Shown here: piece by piece, positions 2,138-63,720 of the stretch
Numbering within the stretch: the first letter of the stretch is position 1
How the letters are laid out: the number at the start of each line of letters is the position of its first letter
Source of the DNA: Cymodocea nodosa
Lineage: Eukaryota > Streptophyta > Magnoliopsida > Alismatales > Cymodoceaceae
DNA length: 64,000 nucleotides
NCBI GenBank assembly: GCA_036874045.1
Contig: CM072339.1
Coordinates: 8,315,501 to 8,379,500, forward strand
Direction of reading: 5' to 3'
The notes under the pieces: generated by a model
What the model saw: the letters and a program-made list of their open reading frames with translations, nothing else
Database searches by the model: none
What the model was told of the DNA's origin: nothing
Program-made: the position numbers and the translations under genes

Positions 2138-2212
2138 AGTTTTTCTAGTACATTATTGGAGATCTAATCAGATATTCTAGTATAGTGCTGGGAAAACACA
2201 AACAAGTATCAT
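2138..2212 (+). promoter_or_regulatory. Degenerate, duplicated primer-binding site after L1
   Basis: The sequence after L1 contains TAGTACATTATTGGAGAT, a worn version of the tRNA-Asp-type site seen cleaner at 5298-5334. A second similar block follows (about 2174-2212) and ends in ACACAAACAAG. The same double arrangement and the same end lie on the - strand at 54583-54648. At 2213 the sequence switches to an RNase H fragment on the opposite strand. Confidence 0.55.
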
Positions 2213-3538
2213 TTAAAGTTTTGCTTGCATAATGAATCACACTAGAAGATTTTTCTATCTTCTGTCCCAACATTACTCCTATAGCAAAATTAAATGCATC
2301 GCACATTAATTCAAATGGATGGCTCCAATTAGGTGCTTGTATTATAGGAGTTGAAATTAAGCTAGTCTTAAGCTTCAAAAATGCTTCTTTGCAATTTTCA
2401 TCAACGTTGAATGGGACATCTTTTAATAGATTAGTTAAAGGTCTAGCTCTTTTGTTATAATCTTTAATAAATCTTCTATAAAATCCAGCATGTCCTAGAA
2501 ATGATCTAATATCTTTTACTGATTTAGGTCTGGTAGATTAGAAATTACTTCTATTTTAGCTTTATCTACTTCCAACCCTTTCTTTGAAACGTGTCCCAAG
2601 ACTATTCATTGCTTAACCATGAAGTGACATTTTTCCCAATTTAGAACCAGATTTTTTTCCACATAGCGTTTTAATACTTGGTCTAAATTGTTTAAACACA
2701 CTTCATATGAAGTTCCATACACAATAAAATCATCCATAAATATTTCTAAAAAATCTTCAATCATTCTAGTGAATATGCCCTGCATATATCTTTGAAAGGT
2801 GGTTGGTGCATTGAATAATCCGAATGGCATTCTCTTAAAAGCATAAGTTCCATTAGGATAAGTGAAAGTTGTTTTCTCTTGATCCTCTAATGCTACTAGA
2901 ACTTGGTTATATACTGAATACCCGTCTAGGAAACAAAAATATTCTTGCCTTGCTAATTTCTCTAGCATTTGATCTATAAAAGGTAAGGGAAAATGATCTT
3001 TCCTAGTCACAACATTCAGGTTTATATAGTCTATACACACTCTCCAACCTGATTGAATTTTAGTAGGTATCAAGTCTTGACTTTCATTCATAATAACTGT
3101 TAATCTTGATTTCTTGGGAACTACATGGATTGGACTAACTCATGAGCTATCAGAAATAGGATAAATTATGTCATTATCTAACCATTTCACTATTTCCTTA
3201 TTGACTACTTCTTTAAGGTTTGGATTTAATCTCCTCTCAGGAATTCTAACTAGTTTAGCATTCTTTTCTAAATATATGTGGTAATAGCATAAAGTTGCAC
3301 TTAACCCTTTTATATCAGTCATAGTCCATCCTATTGCCTCTTTATAAGTTTTTACTACATCTTTTAATTTAGCAATTTGATCCTCTTTTAAATCTTAAGC
3401 AATAATGATTGAACATATTCATTTTTCTTCCAGAAATATCTAGGTTAATTCAAGAGGTAAATGTTTTAAATCTAAATGTTGCCCATTAGAAGCTAGAGCT
3501 CCTAATTGAACATTTTCATTTTCAATATTAATCTCTTC
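2213..3538 (-). pseudogene. Ty3/gypsy (Athila-type) reverse transcriptase and partial RNase H
   Basis: Decayed pol segment read from high to low coordinates. The start of the RT domain (3322-3140, with RRLNPNLKEVV and IIYPISDSS) continues in the same frame into 3091-2606, which holds WRVCIDY, FCFLDGYS, MPFGLFNAPTTFQRYM and the catalytic FMDDF. In-frame stops lie at about 3137 and 2606. One frameshift near 2535 separates RT from 2378-2213, which holds the RNase H start FELMCDAFNFAIGVMLG. RNase H is cut after the LNDT motif at about 2213, where an inverted LTR/PBS block is joined, so the rest of RNase H and the integrase are missing. It shares one frame with the upstream gag-protease. The Athila assignment rests on RT and protease motifs; it is non-functional. 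Confidence 0.85.
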
Positions 3539-5179
3539 TTAATCTCCTTCTATATTTATGCTTTCACTTTCTCCTAAATTTTCAGGGTTTAGTTTCCTAT
3601 TTAGTTCTTCTTGAATCACATCATCTAGCATATCTCCTTCATCCTCTAAAAAGTCTATAGTATGTACGGACATTTCTAACTCCTTAAACTTTTCTAGTTT
3701 GAAAATGTTTAATTGAGTATCCTCATTACCATATGCTAACTTCATTACTCCAGTTTTATAATTTATAATAGCCCCTGATGTTGCTAAGAATGGTCTTCCA
3801 AAAATTAAAGATGTATCATGATTTTGATACTTAATTTGTTGGGAATTCAAAATTACAATATCAATAGGATATATGAAGTTTTTGATTTTAATTAGGTCAT
3901 CGTCTATTTTTCCTCTAGGGTATCTTATACTTCTATCAGCTAATTGAATAACAGTCCTACTAGGGATTAATCCTTCTAATCCTAAGGATGTAAATATATC
4001 ACTCGGCATAACATTTATACCTGCACCTAGGTCTATTAAGGTTCTTTCTAGAATGGTATTTCCTATGGTACATGATATAACAGGGATTCCAAGATCAGAT
4101 AACTTTTTAGGAAATTGTGGCAGAAATAGGGAACTACTTTGCTCAGCTAAAAAGACTTTCCTCAAAACATTTCGCTCTCTTTTCTTAGTATACCACTCCT
4201 TAAGAAATTTAGCATAAGGTGGCACTTTCTGCAATAAGTCTAACAAAGGAATGTTAACTTGTACTTTTTCAAAAATTTCTCTAATTTTTTCTTATTTTTC
4301 AAGAAATGTTTGTTGTAATCTTTCAGGATAGGGTGCTAATGATTGTGATTTAGAAGTTTCTTTATCTTTCATTTGATTTGTTTGATCATTTTTAGTATCA
4401 TTTTAAGATTCAGATTTTTCTACATTGATTTCTAAGTTTTCAGATATTACATTTTCATTATTGTTTTGAATTTTGTTCTTATCCACCTTCATATTACTTT
4501 CTTTTTGAATTCTTGGCGATATATCAGTTCCAAATCTTAATGTTATACATACATCTTCCAGATTTTCATTACTTTCATGATGTTCTTGTATTTCATTTTC
4601 GTGATTATGATCTTCAACTGTTTTTAGTTTTAAATTGCATTCTTTAAATTCTATTGCATTGGTATTTTCTTTTTTCTGTATATCTTGCAAATTATGCAAA
4701 TCTGTAACATTAAAGTTTTCATTTGTGTTTTCCTATTGCATAACTTGTAATTTCATTGTAAATTCGTCTAATGCTTTTAGTTTTCTTTCCAGATTATCTA
4801 ATCTCATTGCATTCAATTTTTGATCAATTTTCATTATGGTTTTTTCAGTTTCGTATATAAGTTCAATTTTAGGTTCTGTATATTCTTCCCTATAGTTTAA
4901 TTGGTTAACTTCTTGTTGCTGACACATGTATTGTTCCAGTTTATCCGTGTTTTGCTCTAAGCTACGCTCCATTCTATCATACCTATCCCAAACTTCCTTA
5001 TCTCTTAACATGTTACAAATTCTAAACTGACCATTAGTTGGGTAAACTATAGGATTCTCATACTCAACTCTATTATATTGAATATAATTCATTTGTTGTT
5101 CATGTGATCTAACCATCTGCAATCGTCTTAGTCTCAAACAATCAGAGATGTCGTGACCTTCCAAATTGCAGAATTCACA
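3539..5179 (-). pseudogene. Athila-type gag C-terminus and aspartic protease
   Basis: One reading frame on the - strand, broken only by stops. It begins with a CCHC zinc knuckle, CEFCNLEGHDISDC (5179-5138), which would bind genomic RNA in the capsid protein. A charged linker follows (to about 4400, stops at 4733 and 4403), then a retropepsin-like protease domain in 4246-3539 with LIDLGAGINVMP. Its Asp is the expected catalytic residue of the DLGA motif. FGRPFLAT, a typical later protease motif, is present. Only about 120 bp separates the zinc knuckle from the primer-binding site, so most of gag has been deleted. The frame continues into the RT segment below 3538. Non-functional. Confidence 0.85.
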
Positions 5180-5297
5180 TATGCTAACTACAGGTTTCAG
5201 AAATGTTTAAGCATAAGCATATGCCATATTCTCAATTATAAAATAAAACACACAACACTCCCTCTACTATTAAAACAAAATAGCATTCATAGTTGCT

Positions 5298-5334
5298 TAG
5301 CTTCTCAATCTCCAACAACGGCGCTAGAAAAACT
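5298..5334 (-). promoter_or_regulatory. tRNA-Asp-type primer-binding site
   Basis: On the - strand it reads TAGCGCCGTTGTTGGAGAT just inside the LTR that ends at 5335. It resembles the complement of the plant tRNA-Asp 3' end that Athila elements use as first-strand primer. The expected TGG at the start is now TAG. Confidence 0.7.
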
Positions 5335-7210
5335 TGTTTGGGGTTGTTAAGTTAAATCGTAAACTTGTTTAATTTTCTTTTATGCTTGTATCAATAATTA
5401 CTTTTAGAAGTAAACAAATAACCTTTCACACAAATTAGATATTAATTCCAATTTGTATTTTAACTGCAAGTGCATAGTGTATATTGTGTTTGTGTGCAAG
5501 TACAGGTCGATCCCATAGAGATTGACTAAGAATTGTGTACTATTTTGATTTTTATATTGGAGTTTATATGTGTTCAGTTAAGCACTCCGTTGAGTTACAG
5601 TTAACACAACAGACCTAGTTCATGGAGTTATGATTAACTCAACGGACTAACCTCGTGGACTTAAATTAACTCCACGACCCTACCTTTCCAATTAAATACT
5701 GCTATTTACAGAGGAATTCAGCCAACCATTAGGCGGTTCCATAGAATGTAAATAACATCAATTAAGCTCTTTAATGTTAGTTAATATTAGATTCATCATT
5801 AAGCAACACTAACATTCAAATATTTCAAATAATAACCATTAAAATCTTTAAGTATCTAGAACAAATCAATTTCAGTAAACAATAAAACTATTTTCTATTT
5901 TCTGAATCAAACAAGCATAAAACATTTATAATACTAACAATGATAACATTAATCATGATACAAAATAAACTATACAACACTTTAATACTAAATGTAAACA
6001 TAGATAATTTGTTGTTTTTGGTATTTTTGTTTTGATATGTTCCTAAAGATGAATAAAAGGTGAAATGTAAAAATCTCTATCGATAGTAAAAACTTCTGTC
6101 ACTACATGCGACGCGATTACACCATTGAAAACTTAATCACTTACAATCTTGCCTCCTCTCCCTATAGAATCGCGAATCAAGAATTGTAAGATGACCTCCT
6201 CTTTAGCATACTGGCATCAACTCGAAATCAAGGCTAGAAGTTTTACGATCTCTTAAGATATGAGTCAGTGCTTGGTGAAAATGGCTTCCCTTCCCGCGAC
6301 ATGATCACTCCTCACAGTGGTTGTCAGTCACTGTGTTTGGCTCAAAATCAACTCGACATCAGGAAAGTATCCTCACATACCTACGATGGTTGGTGATTTT
6401 GGTGGTAGTGTGGAGCTTCAAGGAACTTTCGACGCTTCTTGTAGTTAGCATAGTTCTCCACCTCTGCACACACACTTTCTTCGTCTTTCTCCTCTTCTTT
6501 TATATTTCTTTCTGTAGTAACTGCTTCTGCTTAATTGATTGGTTGGATTTTCTTCATTCATATCAACGATGGTGATTTTTTCTTCATTCCACGAGTGAAT
6601 TCCTACGTGATATGTGTAATCATGGTTTTCCTTCGAGTTTCCTATTTTTGCAACTGCTACAATGGCATATTAGAAAATAAATGGTTCATGGAGTTATAGA
6701 TAACTCAACAGACTTACTTCATTGATTTAACACAACACATTACCTTAGTGTATATTCAAGTAACTCAATGCGTATAGTTATGCTAACTTAACGAGTTATA
6801 CATGTGCTATTCACGTGACATAATAAAGCATTCAAATTCAACACGTGCATAATTCTAACTTAACGAGTTCAAATATACAACTTACGGTTTTTACTCACTA
6901 ACTCAACGAGTTGTTACTGTGTACCTAAATATTCTTTTAGTGTTTAAAACATAACTATCTAGTACATAAAATGTAACTTTCTGAAATAACAGAAAATACA
7001 GATACTTAAGAATTTCAAAGCCTATAATTCACCGACAGTTCAGAAATGTACTTAATTAACGTTAATTTCCTGAAATTATGCAGATTCTTTCATTAAAGCA
7101 TATAACAGTGCAATTATAACATAATGTCTTAATTCTCATATGATAAGCTAAATATTATGCAATTAACCATCATTTAACCGTTAATATTATGCATTTTTTC
7201 ATTCTAAACA
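5335..7210 (-). repeat. Athila-type LTR, copy L2 (5' LTR of the 2213-5179 element)
   Basis: Read on the - strand it runs from TGTTTAGAATG at 7210 to CCAAACA at 5335, then the primer-binding site. It is collinear with L1 and L4 and has the same palindromic modules in its 5' half and the same conserved block near its 3' end. Its 5' boundary is joined directly to an inverted LTR fragment at 7211, not to ordinary flanking DNA, so no target duplication can be seen. Short ORFs inside it have no recognisable domain. Confidence 0.8.
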
Positions 7211-7975
7211 TGCATTTGAGCATCGGATACTTATAGTTTGTAACTATCTAAAACATCTGAACTTGTTAAGTTATTTCTTTATTGCATGTGTGTTTTAGTT
7301 AACTCAACGAAGTAAGTGCATTGAGTTACACTAACTTCACAGACCATTTATTTTCTAATATGCCACTATAGTAGTTGTAGAAATAGAAAATTCGAAGGAA
7401 AACCACAATTACACGTATTACGTTGTAATTCACTCATGGAATGAAGAAGAAATCACCATCGTTGATATGAATGAAGGAAATCCAATTGGTCATTTAAGTA
7501 GAAGCAGTTATTATTGAAAGAAATATAAAAGAATGGGAGAAAGACAAAGAAAGTGTGTGTGTAGGTGGAGAACCGCGCTAACTACAGGAAGCGTCAAAAA
7601 TTCCCTGAAGCTCCACACCACACCACCAAAATCACCAACTATCAGAGGTTTGTGAGGATACTTTCTAGATGTCACGTCGATTCCAAGCCAAACATAGTGA
7701 CTGACAACCACTGTGAGGACTGATCACGTCGTAGGAAGGGAAGCCATTTTCACCAAGCACTGACTCATATCTCAGGAGATCGTAAAGCTTCTAGCCTTGG
7801 TTTTAGGTTGATGCCATTATGCTGAAGAGGAGATCATCTTACAATTCTTGGTTCGTGATTCTATAGGGAGAGGAGGCTAGATTGTAAGTGATTAAGTTTT
7901 CAATGGTGTAATCACGTCGCATGTAGTGATAGAAGTTTTTATTGTCAATAGAGATTTTTACATATACTTTGTTGT
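7211..7975 (+). repeat. Inverted fragment of an Athila-type LTR
   Basis: Collinear with about 546-1460 of L1, on the + strand, head-to-head with L2. It lacks both LTR ends. With L2 it forms a long imperfect inverted repeat (arms about 6095-6735 and 7310-7970). It breaks off at about 7975, where copia pol sequence begins. Confidence 0.75.
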
Positions 7976-11114: not shown

Positions 11115-12701
11115 AATGCTTAGACTCCACAAAAGATAAATATTATTGATGATGTTATTTATCTCATAGATATTATATACTTATTATAGACATATTTGAA
11201 TAATATCTAAACTACTACATAAGATACTATGTATTTATTGTAAAATTATAGAGTATCTTATTGATTTTAAGTATTTTGTCAAGTTTAATGGTTTTCAAAA
11301 TTTTAAGTGGAAGTGTAAATGAAAAACTTTAAATACCTCTGAAATCATGAAATTTTGATTAAGTGACTTTCGTTGAATCAATGAAAGTGCATATGATCAA
11401 GGATGAATTTGACTTGATTGATTAAACTTGTAGAATAATTTATATGTAAATCATATTAAACTATTAATCAAAAGTATGAGCTTATTGACAACGATTCATA
11501 TTTTCAGTAAAATCATAGACGTAAAAATTGTATGAGATTTGTGTTTTATTGCATCTGTATTAATGGAATATATATATACTATGCTTAAAATGAAAAGTGC
11601 TTACAAAGTGAAAATCTTTGAGAGTTTATTGATCAGTTTGATCACGAGCCTTTTGTACTTGAGCAGATAGGTATGTAAGGATTGTTGTTCTCAAAAAGAA
11701 CTCTTTAAATCTGACAACCTAAGGTCCTAATCAGACCTGGGATTGTTGACTGAAAGCTCATTACACGGGTACATTAGAAAGCTCTTGTATGATTCAAGCT
11801 TTTCAAACTAACTTTTAAAGAAAATTATCAATATTAACTATTTTGAAAAGATAAAAGTTGTTTCATTAACTATAGATATCTTTCAATCGAATATAGTTTC
11901 TACCAATATGACTGCTGATTTATTGAATCAACCTTAGTACTTTTGAAAATGTTTATTTGAGATACATTCTTTTATTCTCCTTGAGTTAATCATATTAATT
12001 TTAAAGGTATGTTTTGATTCATATATGGTTGGAGTTGATTCTTGAAATCATTTTTGATGAATTCAGGATGATAGAAATCTTCTGGAAAAAAATTTAAAGT
12101 ATAATTAACATCTATTTTTATACAAGTATATTTTGTATGTTATTAAATATATTTGAAGTATATTTATAGGGGGAGGAATAATAATGTCCAAAATAGATTA
12201 ATATAATTCAAAATATAAATCTTGGTTAATCTCAGTTTAGTCCTCTTAAGATCTTGATGAAACAATTTAAAAGACAAACAAACCATTTTAGATTCATAAA
12301 AAGAGAATATTAAAATAGTTTACAATGTTCTCAAGATGATGTTATATATGTTAAGTTTTAACTTGTGTGTTGTCTTCAAAAGGTTTCAGTTAAAAGCATC
12401 CGAAACTTATTTTTGTCATGTACTAACTAAATGTTATGTTATGTATGGTAATGTGTAAAACTGCCTCTAGACAGCGTTTTACTCGTTAGGTTAGTTAAAT
12501 CAATGAGTTATGCTTAAATATTTCGGGTACCTTGATTAAATAAACTATATTCAATATTCATTTAAAATCTAAACCCGACTACTATACACGTTGAGTTAAT
12601 TGCCTAAAACCCTATTTAAACACTTATTACACGAGCACTTAAGTTATTCGTAAACTTTGTCTAAAAATCTTTCCCACTTGTTGTTGTTACATCATACGAC
12701 A
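11115..12701 (+). other. Non-coding spacer between pol and third ORF, element B
   Basis: No coding sequence seen. It holds a PPT-like run, TAGGGGGAGGAATAA, near 12169-12183. It is collinear with the C spacer (31890-33454, - strand) and, up to about 12270, with the sequence next to LTR L4 of the gypsy-type element (56640-57760, - strand). A shared word is TTGACTGAAAGCTCATTAC. The last 300 bp contains TAACTCGTTAGGTTAG-like palindromic modules typical of the LTRs here. Confidence 0.65.
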
Positions 12702-29597: not shown

Positions 29598-31856
29598 TTA
29601 TCGACCCCTCCTAAGTATATCACTTATAGCATTACATATTTTATCTCCTAGATGCCTAATATCATTTCTGATGTCGTTAAGCACTACATCTAAGTCAGGA
29701 GGAAGCTGGGTTTGCTATTCTGCTTGAACTGAATAACATTGTTGTTGTTGTTGTTGTATATGGTTTGCAGGTTGTTGTTGTTGTTGTCGTTGAGGTTTAT
29801 GCATGGCCTAGAATTTTTGCAAATCTTTGACACTAAATGCTCTCATGCCTTTAGTTTCAGAGGGCCAGTTGGATAAAGTCAATTGACTTGCAAGGATTCT
29901 ACATACAGCATCACCATAAAATAACTTTGAACTCATATGTTGTAGTTGAGACATAAAAACATCAAACCAATTTATTTGAATTCTATTCAACAGGCCATAA
30001 GTTGCATATAAACAACTTCTACTGACTTCCAAATTGTGTCCAACTCTCTGAAATAAATTTGCATGCAATATATTTGCAATAAATCTTGCCTTTGCATTCA
30101 GATTTTCCATTAATCTCATTTCAGAATATACATCTGGAATTTTTGATAAAGATTGAATGTTCCATTCCAGTTGTCTTATCATGTCAAATCTGTTGGTAAC
30201 AACAACACCTTCATTCTTTAATCCCAAAACTTCAAAAATTAATTCAGGAGACAAAATAAACTCCTGTTGATTTATTTGAGTTTTTAGAAATTGTCCATTC
30301 TTGACCAGATTACCATAAAAAGCTGCAATAAGCTCTGTGTATTGCTTCCATTTTGTTCCTACTGGCAAGAATTTAATGAGGCCTTGAAACTCAAATAGAT
30401 CTCTCATTTCCATCAAATTTCTAAACTTTATTGGATGAGCATGCAGAATCTGACATGTAATTAGATTATTATATTTCTGCAATGCTTCTTTAGATCTAAA
30501 ATGAATTGCATTACCTTGAATGTTTAATATTGTACATAAAGAAGGTGATACCTGAAGCCGTGATTCAGAGTTTAATTCATCTTCAGGAACCTCTTCTTCA
30601 AAATGAATGTCATGTTGTTCCTCTTCCAAAATATTATCTTAAAGCTGTTTAGGTAAGCTTGATTCTTCAGCTTCAATAGTGTTAGGAACATTGTCAATAT
30701 GCTCAACATTCATCTGTTCAATCTCTATAGAATGTTCAGAGTTTAATTTTTCCACAAATTCTACAGTTGGTGTATCTGTCTGTAATTGTTCATTTTGTTC
30801 AACAGATAATTCCATTGATTCATGCTGTGAATTCTCAGACTCTACTTCTATAGATTCTGTAGAAGGCTGGTTAACTTTTAGCTCTTCTAGAGTCTTAATA
30901 ATTTCAATATCTGCTACTCCAGACAATTCAGTCTGTGAACTAGTTTCTGCTTCAACATTGTCAATTATATCTACAATAACTTGTTCAATGTCAGGTGCCT
31001 GATGCTCTGATTTGTCAATTTCTGCATCATCAAGACTTGTACTAATAGAAAAACTTGAGCTCATATTTGACTTGTATTTCTTCTCAAGCTTTCTAGCAAG
31101 GGAAAATAAAATCTTATTATCTTCATCAGTTTTAGTGTGCTCGGAACTGATGAGTTTATCAGATGCACAATAAGGTACAATGTCTAGACATACATTGTCC
31201 TTTGGAAATAAATTTTCATCTGATTTTCCTTTTTCAATAGACTTTGTTTCCTTAGCTTTAATTTTTTTGGCTTTCCTTCTTCTATAACATTTCTGTTTCT
31301 CCTTTTCAAGTATTGCTATTTTCTTTTCAAATTGCTCCATAAAAGTTTTCTGTTTTAATTCTTCTAAGGCACTTTCTATTGCAACGGCCTTTCGAAGATT
31401 GTTAACTTTTGTTTTGTCTACAGCAATATCTGATTCTACTTGTTTTGAATATAAAGGAGTAGGGATAGCTGATTCATGCTCTTCCTCAAAAGCATGTAGT
31501 CTCGTACCGTTTATAGGAGTTTGAGGAGTTCTACTTGATGAACCTACACCTTTTTCCAAATATTTTGCATATTGTTTCAAAAATGCAATCTCAACACATT
31601 TCATTCTGTATTCTCTATCAAATTTACTTTGAATCCCCATGTATGTAATACTAGCATCAGTATTTTGAAGTTCTTGTCTAACTTCATTCAATATACCTTC
31701 AGGAAAGAAATATTCACTATAAATTTTTGCTAACCTTTTGTCCACTCGAAATATTTTCTTGAACCAAGTACGTGGAACTTCATCATTCTCTATTTCTTTT
31801 CCTTTTGCATCTCTTCTGCTTTTGCCTTTTCCTCTGCCATGACCTTTGTAGAACAT
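29598..31856 (-). pseudogene. Third ORF in env position, copia element C
   Basis: It starts at MFYKGHGRGKGK (31856); the in-line ATG used by B is ATA here, and an upstream ATG exists at 31889. Order: basic Gly/Lys-rich start; KRLAKIYSEYFFPEG; a long region with predicted helical, Lys/Glu-rich coiled-coil character (about residues 150-190); an acidic middle; the conserved domain with FEFQGLIKFLPVG and LSPELIFEVLGLKNEG; and a Gln-rich CAA-repeat tail. Stops: TAA 30639-30641, TAG 29808-29810 and more in the tail. The TAG at 29808 is at the same place as TAG 14733 in B. No signal peptide or membrane span seen. 'Env' is positional only. Confidence 0.78.
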
Positions 31857-31889: not shown

Positions 31890-33454
31890 ACGGGAAATAT
31901 TTTCTTGACAAAGTTTACAAATAACCTAAGTGCCCATGTAATAAGTGTTTAAATAGGGTTTTTAGGCGTATAACTCAACGTGAAGAGAAGTTGGGTTTAG
32001 AAATTAAATAAATATTGAATAAAGTTTATTCAATCAATGTACCCGAAATATTCAAGTATAACTCGTTGACTTAACTAACCTAATGAGTAAAACGCTGTAT
32101 AGAGGCAGTTTTACACGTTACCTTATCTAACATAACGTCTAGTTATCACACTTAAAACAATTTTCGGATGCTTCCAACTGAAACGTTCCGAAAACCACAC
32201 ACATGCTAAACTTAACATTATCTTGAGAACATTGTAAACTATTTGAACATTTTGTCCTTTGAATCTAAAATAGTTTATTTGTCTTTTTAAATTATTTCAT
32301 CAAGATTTTAAGAGGACATTAATTCAGATTAACTAAGATTTGTATTCTAAAATATATTAATCTGTTTTCGACATTGTTAATCCTCCCCCTACAAATATAC
32401 TTCAAATATATTCAATCAAAATACAAAATATACTTGTAGTGATAGTAGATGTTAAGTATAACTATACTTTTAAATTTTCTTTTCAAAGACTTCCATTATC
32501 CTGACATCATCAAAAATGATTTCCAGAATCAATTCCTACTGTATATGAATCAAAACACAACTTTGAACTTAATGTGATTAATTCAAGGAGAATAAAAGAA
32601 TGTATCTCAAATAAACGTTTTCAAAAGTACTAATGTTGATTCAATAAATCAGTAGTCATATTGGTAGAAACTATATGCGATTCAAAGATATCTATAATTA
32701 ATGAAACAACTACTTCTTTTCAAGACAGTAAATATTGATAATTTTTCTCAAAAGTTAGTTTGAAAGGCTTGAATCATACAAGAGCTTTCTAATGTACCTG
32801 TGTAATGAGCTTTCAATCAACAATCCCAAATCTGATCAGGACCTTAGGTTGCTAGATTTAAAGAATCCTTTTTCTAGACAACAATCCTTACATACCTATT
32901 TGCTCAAGTACAAAAGGCTTGTGATCAAATTGATCAATAAACTCTCAAAGATTTTCACTTTGTAAGCACTTTTCATTTTAAGCACAGTATATATGTATTC
33001 CATTAATACAGATGCAATAAAACACAAATCTCATACAATTTTTACTTCTATGATTGTACTGAGAATATGAATCAGTTTCAATAAGCTTATACTTTTGATT
33101 AACAGTTTAAGATGAGTTACATATAACTTATTCTACAAGTTTAATCAATTAAGTCAAATTTATGCATGATCATATGCATTTTCCTTGATTCAAAGAAAAC
33201 ATTTAATCAAAATTTCAGAATGTCAGAAGTATTTAATGTTTTTCATTTACACTTCCACTTAAAATTGTAAAAACCATTAAAATTGATAAACTACTTTAAA
33301 ATCAAGAAGATACTACTATGATTTTACAATAAATAGATAGTATCTTAAGCAGCAGTTTAGATATTACTTTAGATATTTATAATAAGTATATAATATCTAT
33401 GAGGTGAACAACATCATCAATACTATTTATCTTTTTATGTGGAGTTTAAGCATT
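31890..33454 (-). other. Non-coding spacer between pol and third ORF, element C
   Basis: No coding sequence. On the - strand it carries a PPT-like TAGGGGGAGGATTAAC (about 32394-32379) and palindromic modules near 31970-32120. It is collinear with B's spacer (11115-12701) and with the sequence beside LTR L4 (56640-57760). Confidence 0.65.
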
Positions 33455-47285: not shown

Positions 47286-48706
47286 ATGTCTGAGAAGCGG
47301 GAATTCTACCACTACGACCACCACCAGCAGACAAAGCATCCAATAGTTCTTGAAGACCCTTTCCGCTTGGCATCCCAGCAGTGGCCTCCAGAATTCTCCA
47401 AGACGGCCGATCCACGAAGAACTTACCTCGACTTCCAGGAGTACTCGCATGTATCCGTCGACTACGAAGGCCAGCTGCTGGGCAAGGGATTCCATCTGTC
47501 GTCGGGGTCTTTCGACTCTGCCATCATCGACGAGGGGAAGGTTATGAACGAGATATTTCCTGCGGACGGTGCCACTGGTACGGGTTTTGTTGTCAATGGT
47601 GGTGATTGTAGTACTACTGCTGCTGTCCGTGGTGTAAGAGGAAGTGGGAGCGGTACGCCGGCACCACTGGATTCCCCTATCTCTTCTTCGTTGAACGAGG
47701 CAGCTGTCGAGGACGACGGAGGGAGGATGATAAAGCAAGAGGGGCAATGGCAGGGAAAGGAGTGCGAGGATGGGGATGAAAGGTCCAAGAAAGTGTAAGA
47801 GTACTGTTTGACTTCGGTTCTTGGTCTTCCTTTTCACACATAACACTCGTCTCATAGGTTATTAATCAGCTTCTTGCCCTTTATCCCACCGACCTTCCTT
47901 AGTGGACTTTAGGGTCTCATTCAAAATCCCTACTTCTTCTGGTACGAACTAGTTAAGATTGCTATTACTTGTTCGACTCTTTGTACCTCAAGTGTGTGTG
48001 TGTTGTCGTATGGGTCGATCAGTTGCCGTAATTATACTGCATCTAGACCAACAAGAGCGGCAAGTGATATTAATCTGTCAATGCATGATTCTCAGGTGTA
48101 AAGCGAAGAAGAAAGGGGAGAAACGCCAACGAGAGCCACGATTCGCCTTTGTCACAAAGAGTGAAGTCGATCATCTTGAGGACGGCTATCGGTGGAGGAA
48201 ATATGGCCAAAAAGCTGTCAAGAACAGTCCATACGCAAGGTGCGTGTGTATACATACATATGTACAACTATTAATTACAGCAATAAGATCCCTTTTTGTT
48301 TCTTGGTTCAAGAAGCTTGTGCCTCTAATTAATTATCAAGTTGACCAGAAGCTACTACCGCTGTACCACTCAGAAGTGCCCCGTCAAGAAGAGAGTGGAG
48401 AGATCATGCAAAGATCCGTCGACCGTAATCACAACCTACGAGGGCCAACACATCCACCACAGCCCAACCAATCTCCATCTGAACGGAAACGCCCTCCTCT
48501 CACCGATGCACACGCCTGGCTTCCATCCAGCCATGTTCGTGCATCCCAAAGATCATCTCCTTATTCCTCCCCTACAAAATGCCCTTGTGGACGCAAACCA
48601 TGGACTGTTCCCGCAAGACCCAGCAGCCGAGCAGCTTTTTCCCGCCGATGGTTATGGTCTCCTGCAGGACATCATTCCACCATTCATCCAGCCCAATGAG
48701 CCATGA
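47286..48706 (+). CDS. WRKY transcription factor, group IIc
   Basis: Three exons: 47286-47794, 48096-48239 and 48349-48706. Introns are 301 and 109 nt (GTAAGA..CAG and GTGCGT..CAG), and the joined length is 1,011 nt for 336 residues. ATG 47286 ([11 protein letters not shown]) is chosen because it follows the TATA box closely and earlier codons lie in the leader. A likely nuclear signal is [11 protein letters not shown] (172-182). The WRKY domain has WRKYGQK at 203-209 and a zinc finger C223-X4-C228-X23-H252-X-H254, the group IIc spacing. Intron 2 splits the Arg codon of the usual PYPR motif, the standard R-type position; here the motif is PYAR. The protein should act in the nucleus on TTGAC(C/T) sites in stress or development genes. 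It is closest in style to the WRKY8/28/71 type. All splice sites and frames are intact, so it is probably functional. Confidence 0.92.
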
Positions 48707-56620: not shown

Positions 56621-58010
56621 CTTCCCCCATACCTAAATTTTGCTAGTCCCTTAGTAAACTAAGATCTAATTAATTGGTCTTTCTAAAAGTGCTAGAATTA
56701 ATTCTTCCCCCCTTTGTTTCTTCTGTTCAGCATAAGAACTAGTATTATCATATAGATATTCTGTATGTTTCAGTAATATTGTTTTCTCCTCTTCAACCTA
56801 CAAATATACTTAGAATATATGCAAATTACATACAAAGTATATCATCATCATATAGGTATTAATTATATTATCGTTTGTTTTTCTTTTCATCATCTGTCAT
56901 TCTGAATTTTCCAATAAGATTTCTAGAAGAAATTTCAACAACATACGAATCAAAGTACAATCCAATTAAATATGATTAAGACAAGTAGAATAAAGAATTG
57001 TATCTCCATTAAACAACTTCAAAAGTCTATTCTTAGATTCATATTTCAGCAATTCTAGATAATAGAAAACATACTCGATTCATAAGATATCTGTATTTCA
57101 TAAAACACTTGTATCTTTTCAGAAAAGTATATGTATTTAAATTATTATTTTTTTTTTTTACTTTAAAAGTTAATTTGACAAGCTTGAATCATACAACAAC
57201 TTTCTAATGTACCCATGTAATGAGCTTTCAGTCAACAATCCCAGATCTAATCAGGATCTTAGGTTGCCAAATTTCAAGAGTCCTTTTTCAGGTCAACAAT
57301 CCTTACATACCTATTTTCTCAAGTACAAAAGGCTCGTGATCAAACAAGTCAATAAACTCTCAAAATTTCTTCTTCTTCTTTTTTTTTCTTTTATTCTTTC
57401 ACAATACAAAAACAAAACAAAACATTAAACACATATTGTATATGTACGTATTTCATTAATATAGATGCAATAAAACACCAATCTCATATAGTCCTACTTC
57501 TATCATTTACTGTAAATATGAATCCATATCAATAAGCTCATACATTTTCTGTAGTTTAATAAGATCTACACATAAATCATTTTACAAGTTTAATCAGTCA
57601 AATTAAATGTATCTTTAATCATATGTGTTTCATTTAATCTAGAATTCACATCTCAGCTCCTTCAGGACTTTAGATAATTTTTTCATTAAGCATTCTAATT
57701 TCATTTTAAAATCGTGAAACTGTTAAACTCATGAAATTCAAAAAAAAACATAAGATACTATATCTAGATTTGCATAAATAGTAAATTCTATAGCATCTTA
57801 TATAGTCTTCTAAATATAACATTCAAGTAGTTACAATTTATAAAAATTTTATAGTCTCAATTATCGGATAGTTACAGCAAGTTCATAAAAATTTTCAATT
57901 TCCACAAAACTTTGCAGTACCATTTTAATTCCTTTAATTAACAAACTTACATGGCTGTTACTTTAATTACCTCCCCCCCATACCTACATTTTGCATTGTC
58001 CTCAATGTAA
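56621..58010 (-). other. 3' non-coding region and polypurine tracts of the gag-plus-F-box element
   Basis: On the - strand it starts with GAGGACAATGCAAAATGTAG and a G-run (58003-57970), a motif I recall from just after pol in Athila-type elements. About 220 bp follow that also occur at 63470-63720. Then come about 1.1 kb collinear with the copia pol/third-ORF spacers, and finally the purine run ATGGGGGAAG next to LTR L4. No gene. Confidence 0.6.
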
Positions 58011-58433
58011 AAGATTTGACAATAAATACAGTAATTGTAGCAAGCATGAATATAGTTTCGTTGATTTAGCACCTAACTCAACAAATGAGTTTAAATTTAA
58101 ATTCAGGATAAGTAATCAGTTACATACCTTGTTTCGTTTGTATCTCCTTCTACATATTTTGATTTTTGATTCTGAAAAACTTTTCATTCACAGATAAAAG
58201 CAAAATATATAACAAAATAGCATTTAACAGCTATTGATAAATCATTGTCTTGTGTGGAACACAGACTCCTATGCCTTTGGTGGCTCACAAGCAAGCCAGT
58301 TGGTTTCCCAGAATAGATACCAACAAACTGGATTGATATTTTGTTTTTATTTTTTTTTATAAAATAAACTAAAACTAAATTTTTTAAAAGTAAATGCAGA
58401 AAACACACAACATTAAACACACAAAATCACAGC

Positions 58434-59594
58434 TTAAGAACATGATAGAAAAGTAGAAACAAATGGAATAAACATGTCAGTCCAAGCAAACTTTTTAGGC
58501 ATAATTCTTCTTGCTATTAATTCTGTTTTAATGCAGTTCTTGTTCCTTCTTAATTTGTAAACATGTAATATATTATAAATTCCAAATACAAGTGTATTAC
58601 CATTAATGATATGAAATGCAGAAAGGGATCCTTTTCGGTTCTAGGGTAATGTAGCAGTTTCTATTTCTACATTTATTTCAATATACTCCTCTTCCCACTT
58701 CCATTCATTTATGTCTTTCATAATCCATATTTGAAATTTCATCAATTCATCCCACTATCTTATCAGACATAAAGTAGGATAATCATATTCATTATACCAC
58801 ATTCCTATTTGAATTTTATCAAATTCTGTAGATGGTGGTTTAGCTATATCACTCGGTATAGGTAATATTTCTATAAAATCATCATAACTTTCTATGCTCA
58901 CTATGTATAAATCAGATCCAAATGCTATTGATATATCTGTGACTAGATATATATATCCATCAAGTATGACATGCATGTTATTAATTAATGATTTTTGTCC
59001 TAGATATATCATAATATTTTCAGTCCAAGATCTATTTAGAAAATTATACACACTTAAGCGTAAATCTTCACCCCAATTTCCTGTAGGTCTCCAATAATAT
59101 AATTTTTCAGGAATTGTAGAATTTTTATTAGAAAATATTAAAGCCGACCCACAATTTACAATTGGTACTTCATATCTATTAGGTCTTCCTATATACCATT
59201 CTTCTCTTGTTATAGGATTTCTTATCAAAATATCAGGTAATAGACTTGCATACCTTGGTCTCGTCCTGTATATGATTAATCCTTCATCTATCCCCATAAT
59301 ATGATTTATTCCTTCTAATGTATTGGGTGAAATTCCAGTAGTTTCTTCCATAGGCAGATATTCATGGTTAATTGAACTACGATTAAATGACTTCCATATG
59401 AATCCATCTCTAATCTTAGTCATTTTTGTAGCTTGTAGTCCCTGAAAATATTTTTCTTCAATACATTCTTTAATTTCCTTTGATACACAACACAGCCTAC
59501 ACAGATCTTTAGCTGACAAGTTACTTAGTACTTCCCTTAGTGCATCCAATGGTAATTGCATCAATTCCATTTGTTGATTTTGTATAACACACAC
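58434..59594 (-). pseudogene. F-box protein gene carried in the pol position of an Athila-like element
   Basis: One intronless frame of 386 codons with two TAG stops, at codons 280 (58755-58757) and 318 (58641-58643); no frameshift. An N-terminal F-box (residues 14-50: LPLDALREVLSNLSAKDLCRL, then CCVSKEIKECIEE) would bind SKP1 in an SCF ubiquitin ligase. The rest resembles the F-box-associated substrate-binding part of plant F-box proteins (RNPITREEW at 125-133; after the first stop WDELMKFQIWIMKDINEWKWEEE). Its start lies 177 bp after the gag stop (59772) and its end about 430 bp before the polypurine motif, where protease-RT-integrase would normally be. I infer capture of a host transcript by the retroelement. 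The protein made today would stop at 279 residues. Alternative: a host F-box pseudogene brought in by rearrangement. Confidence 0.8.
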
Positions 59595-59771
59595 AAAAAT
59601 TTAGCAGAGACAAAAATTAACATAACTACTGCACACCCTTGTAGAATTAAGGCATAACTCAACAGACTAAGTTCGTTGAGTTAAGGACTAATTCTACGAT
59701 ATAACTAACTATAAATAAACTTATATATACATATATATATATAGCTACTTCAGTTATACTACTTCATTCAG
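59595..59771 (-). other. Gap between gag and the F-box gene
   Basis: A/T-rich, with an AT microsatellite (about 59722-59742) and an inverted repeat of the LTR type (TAACTCAACAGACTAAG against TTCGTTGAGTTA, 59645-59682). It could hold a promoter for the F-box gene, but I see no clear one. Confidence 0.4.
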
Positions 59772-61105
59772 TTATCCTCCCAGAAGAGGTATCAATTTCA
59801 TTAACAGTTCTATTGATAGGTTAGGTACTGCTTGCATTGGCAATCCTCTAGTAGGTCTAACTTCCATTGATTCCTTATGTCTAAGGGGTATATTTCTATT
59901 TATATTTTGATTTGCAATATTTCCAAATACAAAATCTAGACGATTGTTTAATTGTTGGATTATCTTTTCTAATTTCTCTATTCTAGATCCTTATTCCAGT
60001 AATGCTTCATAACTTATATTCTTCTCATTTACATTTTCTCCTCCTTGGAAATTGTTGTTTCTCCAAGATAAATTTGGGTGATTTCTCCAATTAGGATTAT
60101 AAGAATTTCCAAAGTTATCTTTCTGATTTCTAGCATAAATAATATCTAAATCATTAATGTTTGCATTCTTTTCTGCTAGCTTTTGATTTAATGATAACTC
60201 TTCTATTTTCTTTGTTAATTCAGTTTATTTCACCTCAAGTATAGTACTTGAATCTATTTCATGCATTCCTCTTAGCAATATTCTTTTATCTGCAATAACT
60301 TTAGCCGAATTTTCCCACTGTGTAGTTCTTTTGCAAAGTTTTCTAAATATGCTCATGTTTCTTCACTACATAGTTTTAAAAATCCATTTTAACAAGTAGA
60401 TTCTAATAAAGATTTCGTTGAAACATCTATGCCTTTATAAATTACACCTATTAATTGTGCTTTACTCATTGCATGATGTGGACATTGAGTTAGTAAATCT
60501 TTAAATCTTTCAAAATATTTCTAGAATGATTCACCCTATTTTTGGCTACACATTAATATTTCTTTGTTCTTTTTAGTCGTTTGATGTGTTGGATAATATT
60601 TTTCCAAAAAAATAGAGTAAAATTCAGTCCATGCAGAAATTGAATCAAGCGACAGATTATATAACCATCTCTTAGCTGTGTCTTTTAAAGCAAAAGGGAT
60701 ATATCTAAGTTTAATAGCATCTATACTCATGTTTGGCATTTTCATCATTTGACAAACTTCATTAAATTCTCTAAGGAAATAATAGGCATCCTCTCTTTCT
60801 AATCCATGAAAATGTGGCAATTGACTAATATAATTAGATTTCAGTTCAAACCTATCTCTCTCAAAGTTTGGCAATCGAATACATGAAGGTTCATCAACTA
60901 ATTCAGGATACAGAATTTCTCCTAATGGTTTTTCTACTAGAGTAGCGATCTCTACGTTCTCTTTTAAAGAAAGGTTAGCTACACCCCAAAGGATTTCGTT
61001 AAAGTCTAGATGAGAAAATGTTTCAGTACGCCTCTGTGTTGAATATTCCTAAGTAGGTGTTCTTACTAATTGTTTAGTGCTAGGAGAATGAGTCCATGTG
61101 CTCAT
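59772..61105 (-). pseudogene. Athila-type gag
   Basis: Starts ATG 61105. The frame is kept through the capsid domain (RLPNFERDRFELKSNYI, then FHGLEREDAYYFLREFNEVC, RYIPFALKDTAKRWLYNL, FLEKYYPTHQTTKKNKEI), with TAG stops near 61050, 60536 and 60518. A frameshift and more stops follow near 60240-60340. The C-terminal part has NFGNSYNPNWRNHPNLSW, an Athila gag signature, and a Leu/Ile-rich coiled coil (IEKLEKIIQQLNNRLDFVFG). No CCHC zinc knuckle is present before that signature, unlike the gag at 5138-5179. The stop at 59772 is followed by the F-box gene, not by protease. It would bind and package RNA if intact; now dead. Confidence 0.85.
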
Positions 61106-62069
61106 AAATAAAATAGCAAACGATTAATTACATACTAGTTTGAAGCTTTCCATTCAATAAATATTTGTTGACGGATGAAGTCGAATCAGCTGCTTCTCCT
61201 TCCAGTTCCCCCAACGCATTCTCCTTTCTTTTAAAAGTGCTGGTAACTCGTAAATAACATTCTGTTTTATATATATAATGCACATCCATAAAGTAAATAA
61301 ATCTCGTTGTAAGAATGTGTCTTGCAATGGGTAGCATGGTTCTTGTTTTTATGGGTACGTGTACCACTACTAATTTCAAATTTTGGTAACCGCCAAGCCG
61401 ATGAGGTTTCGTTCATGGTTAAAAGAATAAATGTTCTGCTTAACTTGTGAACTAACCTCGTTGAGTTACAGATAACTCAAAGGAACAATGTCGGTTACTG
61501 TTGCTAACTCCACGGACTAACTTCTTTGAGTTACAGATAACTCAACGGAGTGACCTTATATTATATTACTAACCTCGTGGAGTTAAGTTTAACTCAATGA
61601 ACTTACTTCGTTGAGTTAACACTTAGCAACCTCTAAGTTTACTCCTCGTAAGTACCTCTATGTTTTTTTTTTCCTCCTGCACTCTGCTAACTGAAATAAA
61701 CTTAAATACATGTTATTAATGCAGCATTCTAATCAAAATTCGTTTAAATCTGAACATTATATAAATATTTAACTTGTAGTTCATTTCATGTTATGCAGAA
61801 TTTACATTTTACCTTGCAGCATGCAGATATTTTCAAGCATTTATTATTTAATCCTGTCATTCAGCAAACTGTAAATCTTTTTAAACATTCATGTATAATG
61901 TTCCATAAATTATATAACATTCAATATAGTTCATCCATTTCATCATTCTAAACACGCATGAAAAATATATCTAAAAACATATATTCATTCATATGAATCA
62001 ATTACATTACAATCAAATCAAATATTTTTCATACAAATATATACAAGTACAAGTAGACAAACTATACAA
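61106..62069 (-). other. Leader upstream of gag with palindromic modules
   Basis: No confident gene. An 83-codon open stretch (61379-61128) has no domain. At 61450-61630 are at least four GTTGAGTTACAGATAACTCAA-like palindromes of the LTR type. The rest is A/T-rich. Confidence 0.45.
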
Positions 62070-62219
62070 TTAGCCTCTATTCCTAAGTTCATCTACTTCC
62101 TTCTAAAGTTTTTCTAATTGCTGCTCTAATTGTTCTATCCTTTCTACAACTCCAGTAATGCCTCTAGAAGATACAGATATTTTAGCTGCTGCAACATAAT
62201 TTTTGTATTCTTTCACTAC
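62070..62219 (-). pseudogene. C-terminal coiled-coil peptide fragment
   Basis: An open frame ending at TAA 62070 encodes YVAAAKISVSSRGITGVVER and then IEQLEQQLEKL, with one TAG and EVDELRNRG. The heptad pattern is that of a coiled coil. It has no start and is joined at about 62230 to the middle of LTR L5. It may be the end of an unidentified retroelement ORF. Confidence 0.4.
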
Positions 62220-62229
62220 AATGGTTCTT

Positions 62230-63469
62230 GACTCCTCACAGTGGTTGTCAAGCACTGTGTTTGGCTCGGAATCGACCCGACATCAGGAAAGTATCATCAC
62301 AGACCTCCGATGGTTGGTGATTATGGTGGTGGTGATGATGGTTGGTGTGGTACTTCAGAGAATTGTCGATGCTGATCCTCCTCTGCACACATTGGCCACA
62401 CCCATCAATCACACACCCTTTACTTCTTTTTCTTCTCTTCTTTTATATTTCTTCAGTGGTAACTGCTTTTGCTTGAATGGTCGGTTGGATTTCCTTCATT
62501 CATATCAACGACGATGATTTCTTCTCCCTTCAACGAGTGAATTCTTGCGTGATAGGTGCGATCGTGGTTTTTTTCTTCCAACTTCCTATTTCTGCAACTA
62601 CTACAGTGGCATATTAGAAAATAAATGGTCCATAGAGTTACAGATAACTCAATGGACTTGCTTCGTTGATTTAACTATAAAACACGTGTATAAATTTAAC
62701 TATCCGATGCTTAGGTGCATTTCGGATACTTACAAACTTAACTATCCAATGCCTAGATGCATTTCGGATAGTTACAAACTTAACTATCCGATGCTCAGAT
62801 GCATTTTGGATAGTTATAGATAACTCACCAATATATAACTTAAGTCAATCTTCCAGATCACAACACGTGTCATCAGCAGTTTTATAATAAAGAAATATTT
62901 CAGAGAGTTATAAGTCTAACTATCTAATGCCTAAATGCATTTCGGATAGTTAGAGATAACTCACCGAAAATCCACTTAAGTCATTCTTCCAGAACATGAC
63001 ATGTGTCATCAGCAGTTTTATAATAAATGGAGATTTTGGAGAGTTACACATATAACTATCCGATGCCTAGTTGCAATTTCGGATACTTAGAGATAACTCA
63101 CCGAAAGTCCACTTAAGTCATACATTATGGTTTCGACATGTGTACTTCAGGAAATTATAAAATATTCTTTTAAAACATAACTGTTCGGCAATTTAAACAT
63201 AACTGTCCGGTACATGTTCGGTACATTAAACATAACTGTCCGAAATAACATAAAATTCAGATACTTAAGAATTTCACAGCCTGCAATTTACCGACAGTTT
63301 AGAAATGCACTAAATTAACATTAATTCCCCGAAATTAAGCAGATTCTTTCATTAAAGCATATAACAGTACACTTATAACAAAATAGCTTAATTCTCATAT
63401 GATAAGCTAAATATTATGCAATTAACCATCATTTAACCATTAATATTATGCACTTTTTCATTCTAAACA
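62230..63469 (-). repeat. Athila-type LTR, copy L5 (3' end missing)
   Basis: It starts TGTTTAGAATG at 63469 and is collinear with L4 until about 62230, missing roughly the last 900 bp of the LTR and the primer-binding site. It is in the right place and direction to be the 5' LTR of the gag-plus-F-box element, but the link is broken. Its 5' half has the largest set of hairpin repeats (62696-63130). Confidence 0.75.
62696..63130 (-). repeat. Hairpin minisatellite in L5
   Basis: Three copies of a 42-bp unit (62696-62737, 62738-62779, 62780-62821). Each is itself an imperfect inverted repeat with AACTATCCGA and TCGGATAGTT arms. It runs into a longer unit of about 135 bp (starting 62780, 62914 and 63050) that adds an ACACGTGTCATC-like box. 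Confidence 0.85.
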
Positions 63470-63720
63470 ATACTATATCTAGATTTGTATGAATAGTAAA
63501 ATTTTGTAGCATCTTATATAAGATTCTAACATTCAAGCAGTTACAATGCTTAAAAATCTTACAATCTCATTTATCGGATAGTTATAGCAAATTCATAAAT
63601 AAAAAAATTTTCAATTTCCATAGAACTTTGCAACACTATTCTAATTCCTCTAATTAACAAAATTACTTGGATTTTAATATAATTATGTCCCCCCCCATAC
63701 CTACATTTTGCATTGTCCTT
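63470..63720 (-). other. 3' end of a further Athila-type element, polypurine motif
   Basis: Same as 57755-58005: on the - strand AGGACAATGCAAAATGTAGG plus a G-run, then 220 bp. Here the 1.1-kb spacer seen at 56640-57750 is absent and the sequence goes straight into L5. Confidence 0.6.

What the first reader, a model, noticed from the sequence alone, without database searches (positions are those of the whole stretch)
58434..61105. F-box gene in the pol slot of an Athila-like retroelement
On one strand and in order: LTR L5, gag (to 59772), a full-length-size intronless F-box gene (59594-58434), the post-pol polypurine motif, 3' spacer, polypurine tract and LTR L4. No protease, RT or integrase lies between gag and the polypurine motif. 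The F-box frame has only two stops, both TAG, and no indels, about the same wear as the pol genes nearby. This suggests a host gene captured by a non-autonomous gypsy element that would rely on another element's pol. An F-box protein in such a place could also target host silencing factors, but that is speculation.
Basis: partly seen in the sequence, partly recalled or inferred. Interest (0 to 1): 0.88.

Follow-up and report, generated by a model that had tools for sequence, protein, structure and literature searches.

The report
Retroelement carrying an F-box gene
An abundant plant retroelement family carries a host-type F-box gene (the part of a ubiquitin ligase that picks proteins for destruction) and keeps its capsid gene behind, not before, its polymerase genes, an unusual layout that could let the element act on the host's protein-degradation machinery.

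Summary
The F-box ORF is real (window 59570-58434, minus; PF00646 E 2e-10), lies just downstream of a gag ORF, and is not a one-off. The window's plant genome (375 Mb) holds 2,789 sites matching an F-box 26-mer (<=2 mismatches, control 0). The F-box lies beside gag in 28 of 30 copies picked by F-box and behind it in 16 of 20 picked by gag.

(1) LTR L5 is not this copy's 5' LTR: the copy is truncated at 62231 and L4/L5 are only 85-86% alike where they match. (2) The F-box is not in the pol slot and the family is not pol-less: integrase lies upstream of gag in 6 of 10 extended copies, RT/RNase H in five. One copy shows LTR - PBS - zinc-knuckle ORF - PR - RT - RH - (partly deleted) IN - ORF-X - gag - F-box - PPM - PPT - LTR, LTRs 94.2% identical.

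So this is an autonomous-type, Athila-like family with an accessory F-box gene and capsid-type gag behind integrase. The reading frame was kept (moderate evidence); a codon test was inconclusive. Function (SCF receptor, perhaps against host silencing) is inference.

The parts
58434..59570 (-). F-box gene (379 codons with stop; two in-frame TAG in this copy, no indel); C-terminal part perhaps FBA-like
   Evidence: Pfam; FBA_1 E 0.0028 (below its cut-off) in one of two other copies
59772..61105 (-). gag ORF with capsid-type Retrotrans_gag domain and YNPNWRNHPN motif, no zinc knuckle found; broken by stops and a frameshift
61106..62069 (-). family stretch between ORF-X and gag
   Evidence: 61106-62230 is matched in 8 of 10 extended copies, and 303 bp of it beside gag in L003; L007 lacks it
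62070..62231 (-). C-terminal remnant of ORF-X; the copy is truncated here
57960..58010 (-). polypurine motif downstream of the F-box
   Evidence: 94-100% identical in 10 of 10 extended copies
56641..57959 (-). 3' spacer
56622..56640 (-). polypurine tract next to the 3' LTR
   Evidence: sequence; same junction in L009 and L006
54574..56621 (-). 3' LTR (L4) of the F-box copy
62231..63719 (-). LTR L5 fragment plus post-polypurine-motif spacer of another copy; not the 5' LTR of the F-box copy
2148..5206 (-). zinc-knuckle ORF, protease, RT, RNase H of a related subfamily copy behind LTR L2; shows the 5' half of the layout
5308..7210 (-). LTR L2 with a PBS-like TAGCGCCGTTGTTGG near 5310-5330, 5' LTR of that related copy
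   Evidence: PBS read by eye

Best explanation
The F-box gene is the last gene of a high-copy, autonomous-type Ty3/gypsy (Athila-like) LTR retroelement: 5' LTR - PBS - zinc-knuckle ORF - protease - RT - RNase H - integrase - ORF-X (weakly Transposase_32-like) - capsid-type gag - F-box - polypurine motif - spacer - PPT - 3' LTR. A host-type F-box gene was captured, probably by template switching during reverse transcription (inferred), and then spread with the element. Its protein most likely binds SKP1 through the F-box and offers targets bound by its C-terminal domain to an SCF ubiquitin ligase (inferred from domains), serving the element as an accessory factor. The window copy is a truncated, decayed member. 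Shown: order, word counts, LTR pairs, target-site duplications of two internally deleted copies. Moderately supported: frame retention. Inferred: capture route, SCF activity, benefit to the element.
For: Order by protein match: RT-RH, IN, ORF-X, gag, F-box in sequence on one strand in 5 of 10 extended copies (L002, L004, L005, L006, L010), IN onward in a sixth, L011. L006 also has 5' LTR, PBS, zinc-knuckle-type ORF and PR, with LTRs 94.2% alike. The three within-copy LTR pairs (94.2, 93.9, 93.0%) all exceed the 63 between-copy pairs of the same 12 LTRs (max 92.9, mean 88.0; window LTRs left out). Site duplications, read by eye: ATATT in L007, CCATT in L009. Word sites, 26-mers with <=2 mismatches, reversed control 0 each: RNase H 3,534, ORF-X 3,114, gag 3,626, F-box 2,789. 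RNase H to gag spacing: 22 of 35 at 6.4-6.7 kb. F-box behind gag in 16 of 20 gag-picked copies, 3 of the 16 in part. Frame-breaking indels in those 16 F-boxes: 6 in 12.3 kb, none shared by 3 copies; non-coding flanks 5.1-7.4/kb.
Against: Site duplications were seen only in internally deleted copies; one guess at the 5' end of a pol-bearing copy found no LTR. Four of 10 extended copies show no pol in front as fetched (L003, L007, L008, L009). The only copy with both LTRs and pol has a truncated 5' LTR, a decayed zinc knuckle and a partly deleted integrase. The codon test is inconclusive: N/S falls with allele frequency (3.51 to 1.48), but shifted-frame controls fall too in the middle classes, and overall N/S (448/155 = 2.9) is near neutral expectation (3.0 at kappa 3). 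The indel comparison sets F-boxes of gag-picked copies against flanks of F-box-picked copies, uses the window copy as reference, and non-coding DNA has more simple repeats. No host paralogue was identified: an FBA_1 search of the genome gave no match (31 candidates; the tool says this does not show absence). FBA_1 is below its cut-off in one copy and not listed at E<=10 in the other; the fold model is poor (pLDDT 36).
Confidence: 0.82

Rival explanations
1. Non-autonomous gag plus F-box element mobilised by another element's pol.
For: At the window locus no pol lies between gag and the polypurine motif; L007 and L009 are copies with LTR pairs and site duplications that lack pol, so internally deleted forms exist and may have moved in trans.
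Against: Pol lies upstream in 6 of 10 extended copies; L007 and L009 have different deletions; RNase H and gag words are about equally frequent, and 22 of 35 linked pairs sit 6.4-6.7 kb apart.
Confidence: 0.08
2. The F-box is a dead passenger, captured once and hitch-hiking without function.
For: Overall N/S in 46 copies (448/155 = 2.9) is close to neutral expectation (about 3.0 at kappa 3); 41 of 46 sampled copies carry at least one stop in the part read.
Against: Most sampled differences are rare and probably arose after insertion, so they say little about the source lineage. Frame-breaking indels are about ten times rarer than in flanking non-coding DNA, none is shared by 3 or more copies, while a 3-base insertion is. 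Copies without a stop in the part read exist (5 of 46).
Confidence: 0.35
3. Composite: gag plus F-box belong to a second element joined behind the pol element by recombination or nesting, not one unit.
For: Gag behind integrase is abnormal for Ty3/gypsy; the 5' ORF has its own zinc knuckle; several copies lie in nested LTRs.
Against: No LTR match lies between pol and gag in the 6 pol-bearing extended copies; the stretch is colinear at about 85-95% identity across copies and the spacing is steady on C1. A composite origin long ago is possible, but it now spreads as one unit.
Confidence: 0.1
4. A cellular F-box gene family into which elements happened to insert.
For: Many plant F-box genes are intronless and numerous (recalled); the genome gives many F-box domain matches (which does not separate element copies from host genes).
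Against: The F-box has the same flanks (gag, polypurine motif, spacer, LTR) in nearly all copies examined.
Confidence: 0.01

Closest known systems
Athila / Calypso / Diaspora lineage (Ty3/gypsy, OTA superclade)
   Same: PR-RT-RH-IN order, tRNA-Asp-type PBS (tRNA identity recalled), polypurine motif behind the coding region, long LTRs, extra ORFs in the 3' part (lineage features recalled in part; PMC6317226 passages).
   Different: Capsid-type gag lies behind integrase; the 3' gene is an F-box protein; lineage not tested by a tree.
Thlaspi arvense 'LTR-gene' of the F-box family (PMC8764390; passages read)
   Same: One F-box-family gene (TaChr6G576) is reported there as an LTR-gene, so F-box genes tied to LTR elements are not unheard of.
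   Different: The passages speak of one gene, tandemly duplicated; no high-copy element family with an F-box slot is described in them.
Orchid Ty3/gypsy elements with an m6A demethylase domain (PMC9289625; passages and one section read)
   Same: A host-type protein domain fixed in gypsy families.
   Different: Other domain. The section describes a screen of 121 angiosperm genomes with 15 non-canonical domains and names several, no F-box; 'F-box' occurs nowhere in the main text. Supplements not seen.
LTR-captured genes such as maize Bs1, and rice/sorghum captured genes (PMC7264820, PMC3726574; passages read)
   Same: Host gene inside an LTR element, usually sense orientation.
   Different: Here pol is kept and a large family carries the gene. 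'F-box' occurs in neither main text.
Plant virus F-box-type proteins (polerovirus P0; abstracts in search listing)
   Same: A genetic parasite encodes a protein with an F-box-like motif; P0 targets ARGONAUTE1.
   Different: Different protein; here a host-like F-box with another C-terminus; no target tested.
Retand/Ogre elements with extra ORFs (PMC11963269, PMC6317226; passages read)
   Same: Large OTA elements with extra ORFs beside gag-pol.
   Different: Extra ORFs named there include antisense TRP28 and the plant mobile domain; 'F-box' occurs in neither main text.

Membership tests
Athila lineage (Ty3/gypsy) | Domain order PR-RT-RH-IN | tested here: met
   Full order in L006 (IN partly deleted), RT-RH-IN in four more
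Athila lineage (Ty3/gypsy) | gag (capsid) upstream of protease in the same coding region | tested here: not met
   5' ORF has a zinc knuckle (decayed in L006) but no match to the gag domain in L006 and the window pol copy; gag domain lies behind IN
Athila lineage (Ty3/gypsy) | tRNA-Asp PBS behind the 5' LTR | tested here: inconclusive
   TGGCACC(A/G)TTGCC in L006 and L007; comparison with tRNA-Asp is from memory
Athila lineage (Ty3/gypsy) | RT/RH/IN phylogeny and absence of an additional RNase H | not tested
   No reference set was held
LTR retroelement | Paired LTRs, PPT, PBS, 5-base site duplication | tested here: met
   L007 (ATATT), L009 (CCATT); LTR pairs 93.0-94.2%; site duplications only in internally deleted copies
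Non-autonomous (pol-less) LTR element | No pol in the family | tested here: not met
   Integrase upstream in 6 of 10 copies, RT-RH in 5 of 10
F-box protein | F-box domain | tested here: met
   PF00646 2.1e-10, 3e-10 and 7.1e-9
F-box/FBA subfamily | F-box associated domain in the C-terminal part | tested here: inconclusive
   FBA_1 E 0.0028, 18.0 bits, cut-off 21.1 in one of two copies scanned; none in the genome search
SCF substrate receptor | SKP1 binding and target ubiquitination | not testable with these tools
   -

The most novel reading that the evidence does not exclude
A reorganised retroelement lineage that split its gag: zinc-knuckle nucleocapsid stays with pol behind the 5' LTR, capsid moved behind integrase and is made from a separate message, next to a captured F-box gene that the element uses as an SCF receptor to remove a host restriction or silencing factor, like the P0 strategy of plant viruses.
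Probability: 0.2. Interest if true: 0.93.

Novelty: new variant of a known kind. Interest (0 to 1): 0.75.

Why it matters
If right, it is a retroelement family with thousands of gene-word sites that disobeys the gag-before-pol order and carries a ubiquitin-ligase adaptor. A large plant survey states that elements with domains in unexpected order were removed as likely mispredictions (PMC6317226), so such layouts may have been filtered out elsewhere. It gives a testable case of a transposon acting on the host protein-degradation system, and a warning for genome annotation: a great many F-box matches in this genome are likely transposon copies.

Tried and rejected
Non-autonomous pol-slot reading: rejected after reading copies upstream. 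L5 as 5' LTR: rejected. An F-box-less ancestral form: 4 of 20 gag-picked copies lack the F-box; their DNA is an LTR (L054), spacer of the same family at different offsets (L055, L065) or copia-type sequence (row 53), which looks like deletions or insertions; I read further DNA of only one of them, and not the junction itself. N/S by allele frequency: looked like selection but shifted-frame controls shared much of the trend, so not used as evidence. Fold model: pLDDT 36, no fold search made. Protein homologues: none for the F-box (E<=0.001, 292 candidates, three-sequence alignment, E<=1, 3,768 candidates); one short gag hit. Viral contigs: none. PDB: only weak chance-level rows. Retrogene signs: a poly-A-like stretch lies behind the F-box stop (58340-58362), and imperfect A/C-rich repeats of 15-16 bases flank the ORF (58395-58426 against 59581-59598, 81-87%); these may be microhomology or chance and are no clear site duplication. 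Site duplication of a pol-bearing copy: one fetch missed the LTR. Host FBA_1 genes: no match at E<=0.001, 31 candidates, uninformative. Papers: 10 searches answered, judged by titles and abstract starts; some lists were capped (15 of 35, 15 of 43, 20 of 21, 5 of 17). Seven papers were opened in passages. One of them reports an F-box-family LTR-gene; none of the passages describes an F-box-bearing element family or gag behind pol. Other listed papers holding the word F-box were not opened; subscription papers are not held. Species not identified.

Full report
What is there. On the minus strand, the window holds gag (61105-59772), an F-box ORF (59570-58434), a polypurine motif (about 58010-57960), a spacer, a polypurine tract and LTR L4 (56621-54574). 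The F-box is secure (Pfam 2.1e-10). Its frame has two TAG stops and no indel in this copy, while gag has several stops and a frameshift.

L5 is a chance neighbour. L5 matches L4 in two stretches of its U3 side (85.4% over 540 bp, 86.3% over 562 bp) and, apart from short repeat motifs, has no counterpart of L4's other half. It is preceded by a copy of the post-polypurine-motif spacer (63470-63719 against 57755-58002, 82%), as expected for the 3' LTR of another element. The 1.1 kb between L5 and gag belongs to the F-box family and continues upstream in other copies. The window copy is therefore cut at 62231, inside ORF-X.

A large family. The window lies in a 374.6 Mb genome. A search with the F-box protein scored 138 of 6,247 first-look candidates, the best ones, 88-100% identical. 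Sites matching 26-base words with at most 2 mismatches number 2,789 for F-box, 3,626 for gag, 3,534 for RNase H and 3,114 for ORF-X; each reversed control gave 0. These are word counts, not counts of intact elements, and the RNase H word was chosen to fit the related window pol copy too. Of 30 loci picked by F-box score (one is the window itself), 28 have gag, F-box, polypurine motif and spacer in line, three of them (L007, L011, L021) with only part of gag; L015 lacks gag, L012 lacks gag and the 3' part. Of 20 loci picked by gag score (every seventh row), 16 have the F-box directly downstream, 3 of these in part (L056, L062, L064); 4 do not. On contig C1 up to 14.32 Mb, 30 of 41 exact F-box sites have an exact gag site 500-1100 bp upstream on the same strand, median spacing 783 bp; 30 of the 100 exact gag sites have an exact F-box site behind them.

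Where pol is. Ten copies (L002-L011) were read about 8 kb to each side. In five, RT-RNase H, integrase, ORF-X, gag and F-box follow each other on one strand; in a sixth the fetched stretch begins in integrase. The other four (L003, L007, L008, L009) show no pol in front as fetched. Pfam confirms RT, RNase H and integrase in L002. L006, read 6.5 kb further, has 5' LTR, PBS, zinc-knuckle-type ORF and protease in front, and its LTRs are 94.2% identical over 1,633 bp. Its 5' LTR is truncated and its integrase partly deleted. The three within-copy LTR pairs (94.2, 93.9, 93.0%) exceed all 63 between-copy pairs of these 12 LTRs (82.2-92.9%, mean 88.0). L007 and L009 have 5-base site duplications (ATATT, CCATT, read by eye), but both lack pol through internal deletion. 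On C1, 35 of 81 exact RNase H sites have an exact gag site 4-9 kb downstream on the same strand, 4 upstream, and 4 and 1 on the other strand; 22 of the 35 spacings fall at 6.4-6.7 kb, and 12 RNase H sites have gag and F-box in line. The top-hit lists agree in the main: RT to gag same strand at +6.2, +6.4, +6.5 and +8.9 kb but also one at -5.5 kb; RT to F-box at +7.8 and +8.1 kb, and one on the other strand.

Gag behind pol. Between 5' LTR and protease, both L006 and the window's related pol copy (LTR L2, 2148-5206) have an ORF with a zinc knuckle (CEFCNLEGHDISDC in the window, decayed in L006) and no match to the capsid-type gag. The downstream gag has Retrotrans_gag and the YNPNWRNHPN motif but no zinc knuckle by my pattern. 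So the gag functions look split, with capsid behind integrase; this rests on two copies for the 5' end. A reference survey of plant elements reports that sequences with domains in unexpected order were removed as likely mispredictions (PMC6317226, passage read).

The F-box protein. The N-terminus fits the F-box; one of two open copies scanned shows a sub-threshold F-box-associated domain (FBA_1, E 0.0028). A genome search with FBA_1 found nothing, which the tool calls uninformative. The structure model is too poor to use. No homologue was found in the protein collection, which seems poor in plant sequences: gag found one 119-residue hit. The host origin is thus inferred from the domain.

Was the frame kept? 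In gag-picked copies the F-box has 6 frame-breaking indels in 12.3 kb (0.49/kb), none shared by three or more copies, and a 3-base insertion in four or five copies. Non-coding stretches beside it, measured in F-box-picked copies, have 5.1-7.4/kb with 2-6 shared ones; gag has 0.9-2.5/kb. All are counted against the window copy, so indels of the window copy itself count as shared. The F-box-picked set gives 0.09/kb for the F-box but is biased by its choice. The N/S ratio falls from 3.51 in singletons to 1.48 in alleles seen 8 or more times (p 0.004), but the same test in shifted frames falls too in the middle classes, where alleles are richer in transitions. I count the frame evidence as moderate and the codon evidence as inconclusive.

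How it may work. Replication is by the family's own pol (sequence inference). Gag and F-box sit far from the 5' LTR and are separate ORFs; a spliced or separate message is likely but not shown. The F-box protein would join SKP1 and offer bound host or element proteins for ubiquitination. Viral precedents exist: abstracts listed describe polerovirus P0 with an F-box-like motif targeting ARGONAUTE1. A target here is unknown.

Novelty. Capture of host genes by LTR elements is known (PMC7264820, PMC3726574, PMC9289625; passages read). One F-box-family LTR-gene is reported in Thlaspi arvense (PMC8764390, passages); in the wild tomato paper the F-box passages shown are in its reference list (PMC13310191). 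In the titles and abstract starts of the searches and in the passages opened I found no element family with an F-box gene, nor gag behind integrase. That covers open-licence PubMed Central papers only, and capped lists. The Thlaspi passage, found on re-checking, lowers interest slightly (0.76 to 0.75).

Noticed in passing
window 29811-30638 (-): A copia-type (SIRE-like, by eye) element carries an ORF that is 30% identical over 135 residues to ORF-X of the F-box gypsy family (E 3e-21 pairwise; both weakly Transposase_32), so two superfamilies seem to share an accessory ORF.
   Followed up: partly
window 59641-59697, 61459-61620, 6685-6733, 7298-7340: A palindromic motif like GTTGAGTTA...TAACTCAAC recurs in LTRs of different families and between gag and F-box.
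   Followed up: no
window 47953-48696 (+): A host WRKY gene exon (PF03106, E 4e-8) lies among the elements.
   Followed up: no
window 56797-57634 against 11380-12170 and 32388-33176: Part of the 3' spacer of the gypsy F-box element is about 72-73% identical to stretches behind pol of the copia-type elements, perhaps exchange between superfamilies.
   Followed up: no
G000 C2 8.76-9.66 Mb: Eight RT rows with the same open-frame value of 633, suggesting a recent local amplification.
   Followed up: no
L007 (L041/L042) and L009 (L045/L046): Internally deleted copies with LTR pairs and site duplications may have moved using pol supplied in trans.
   Followed up: partly
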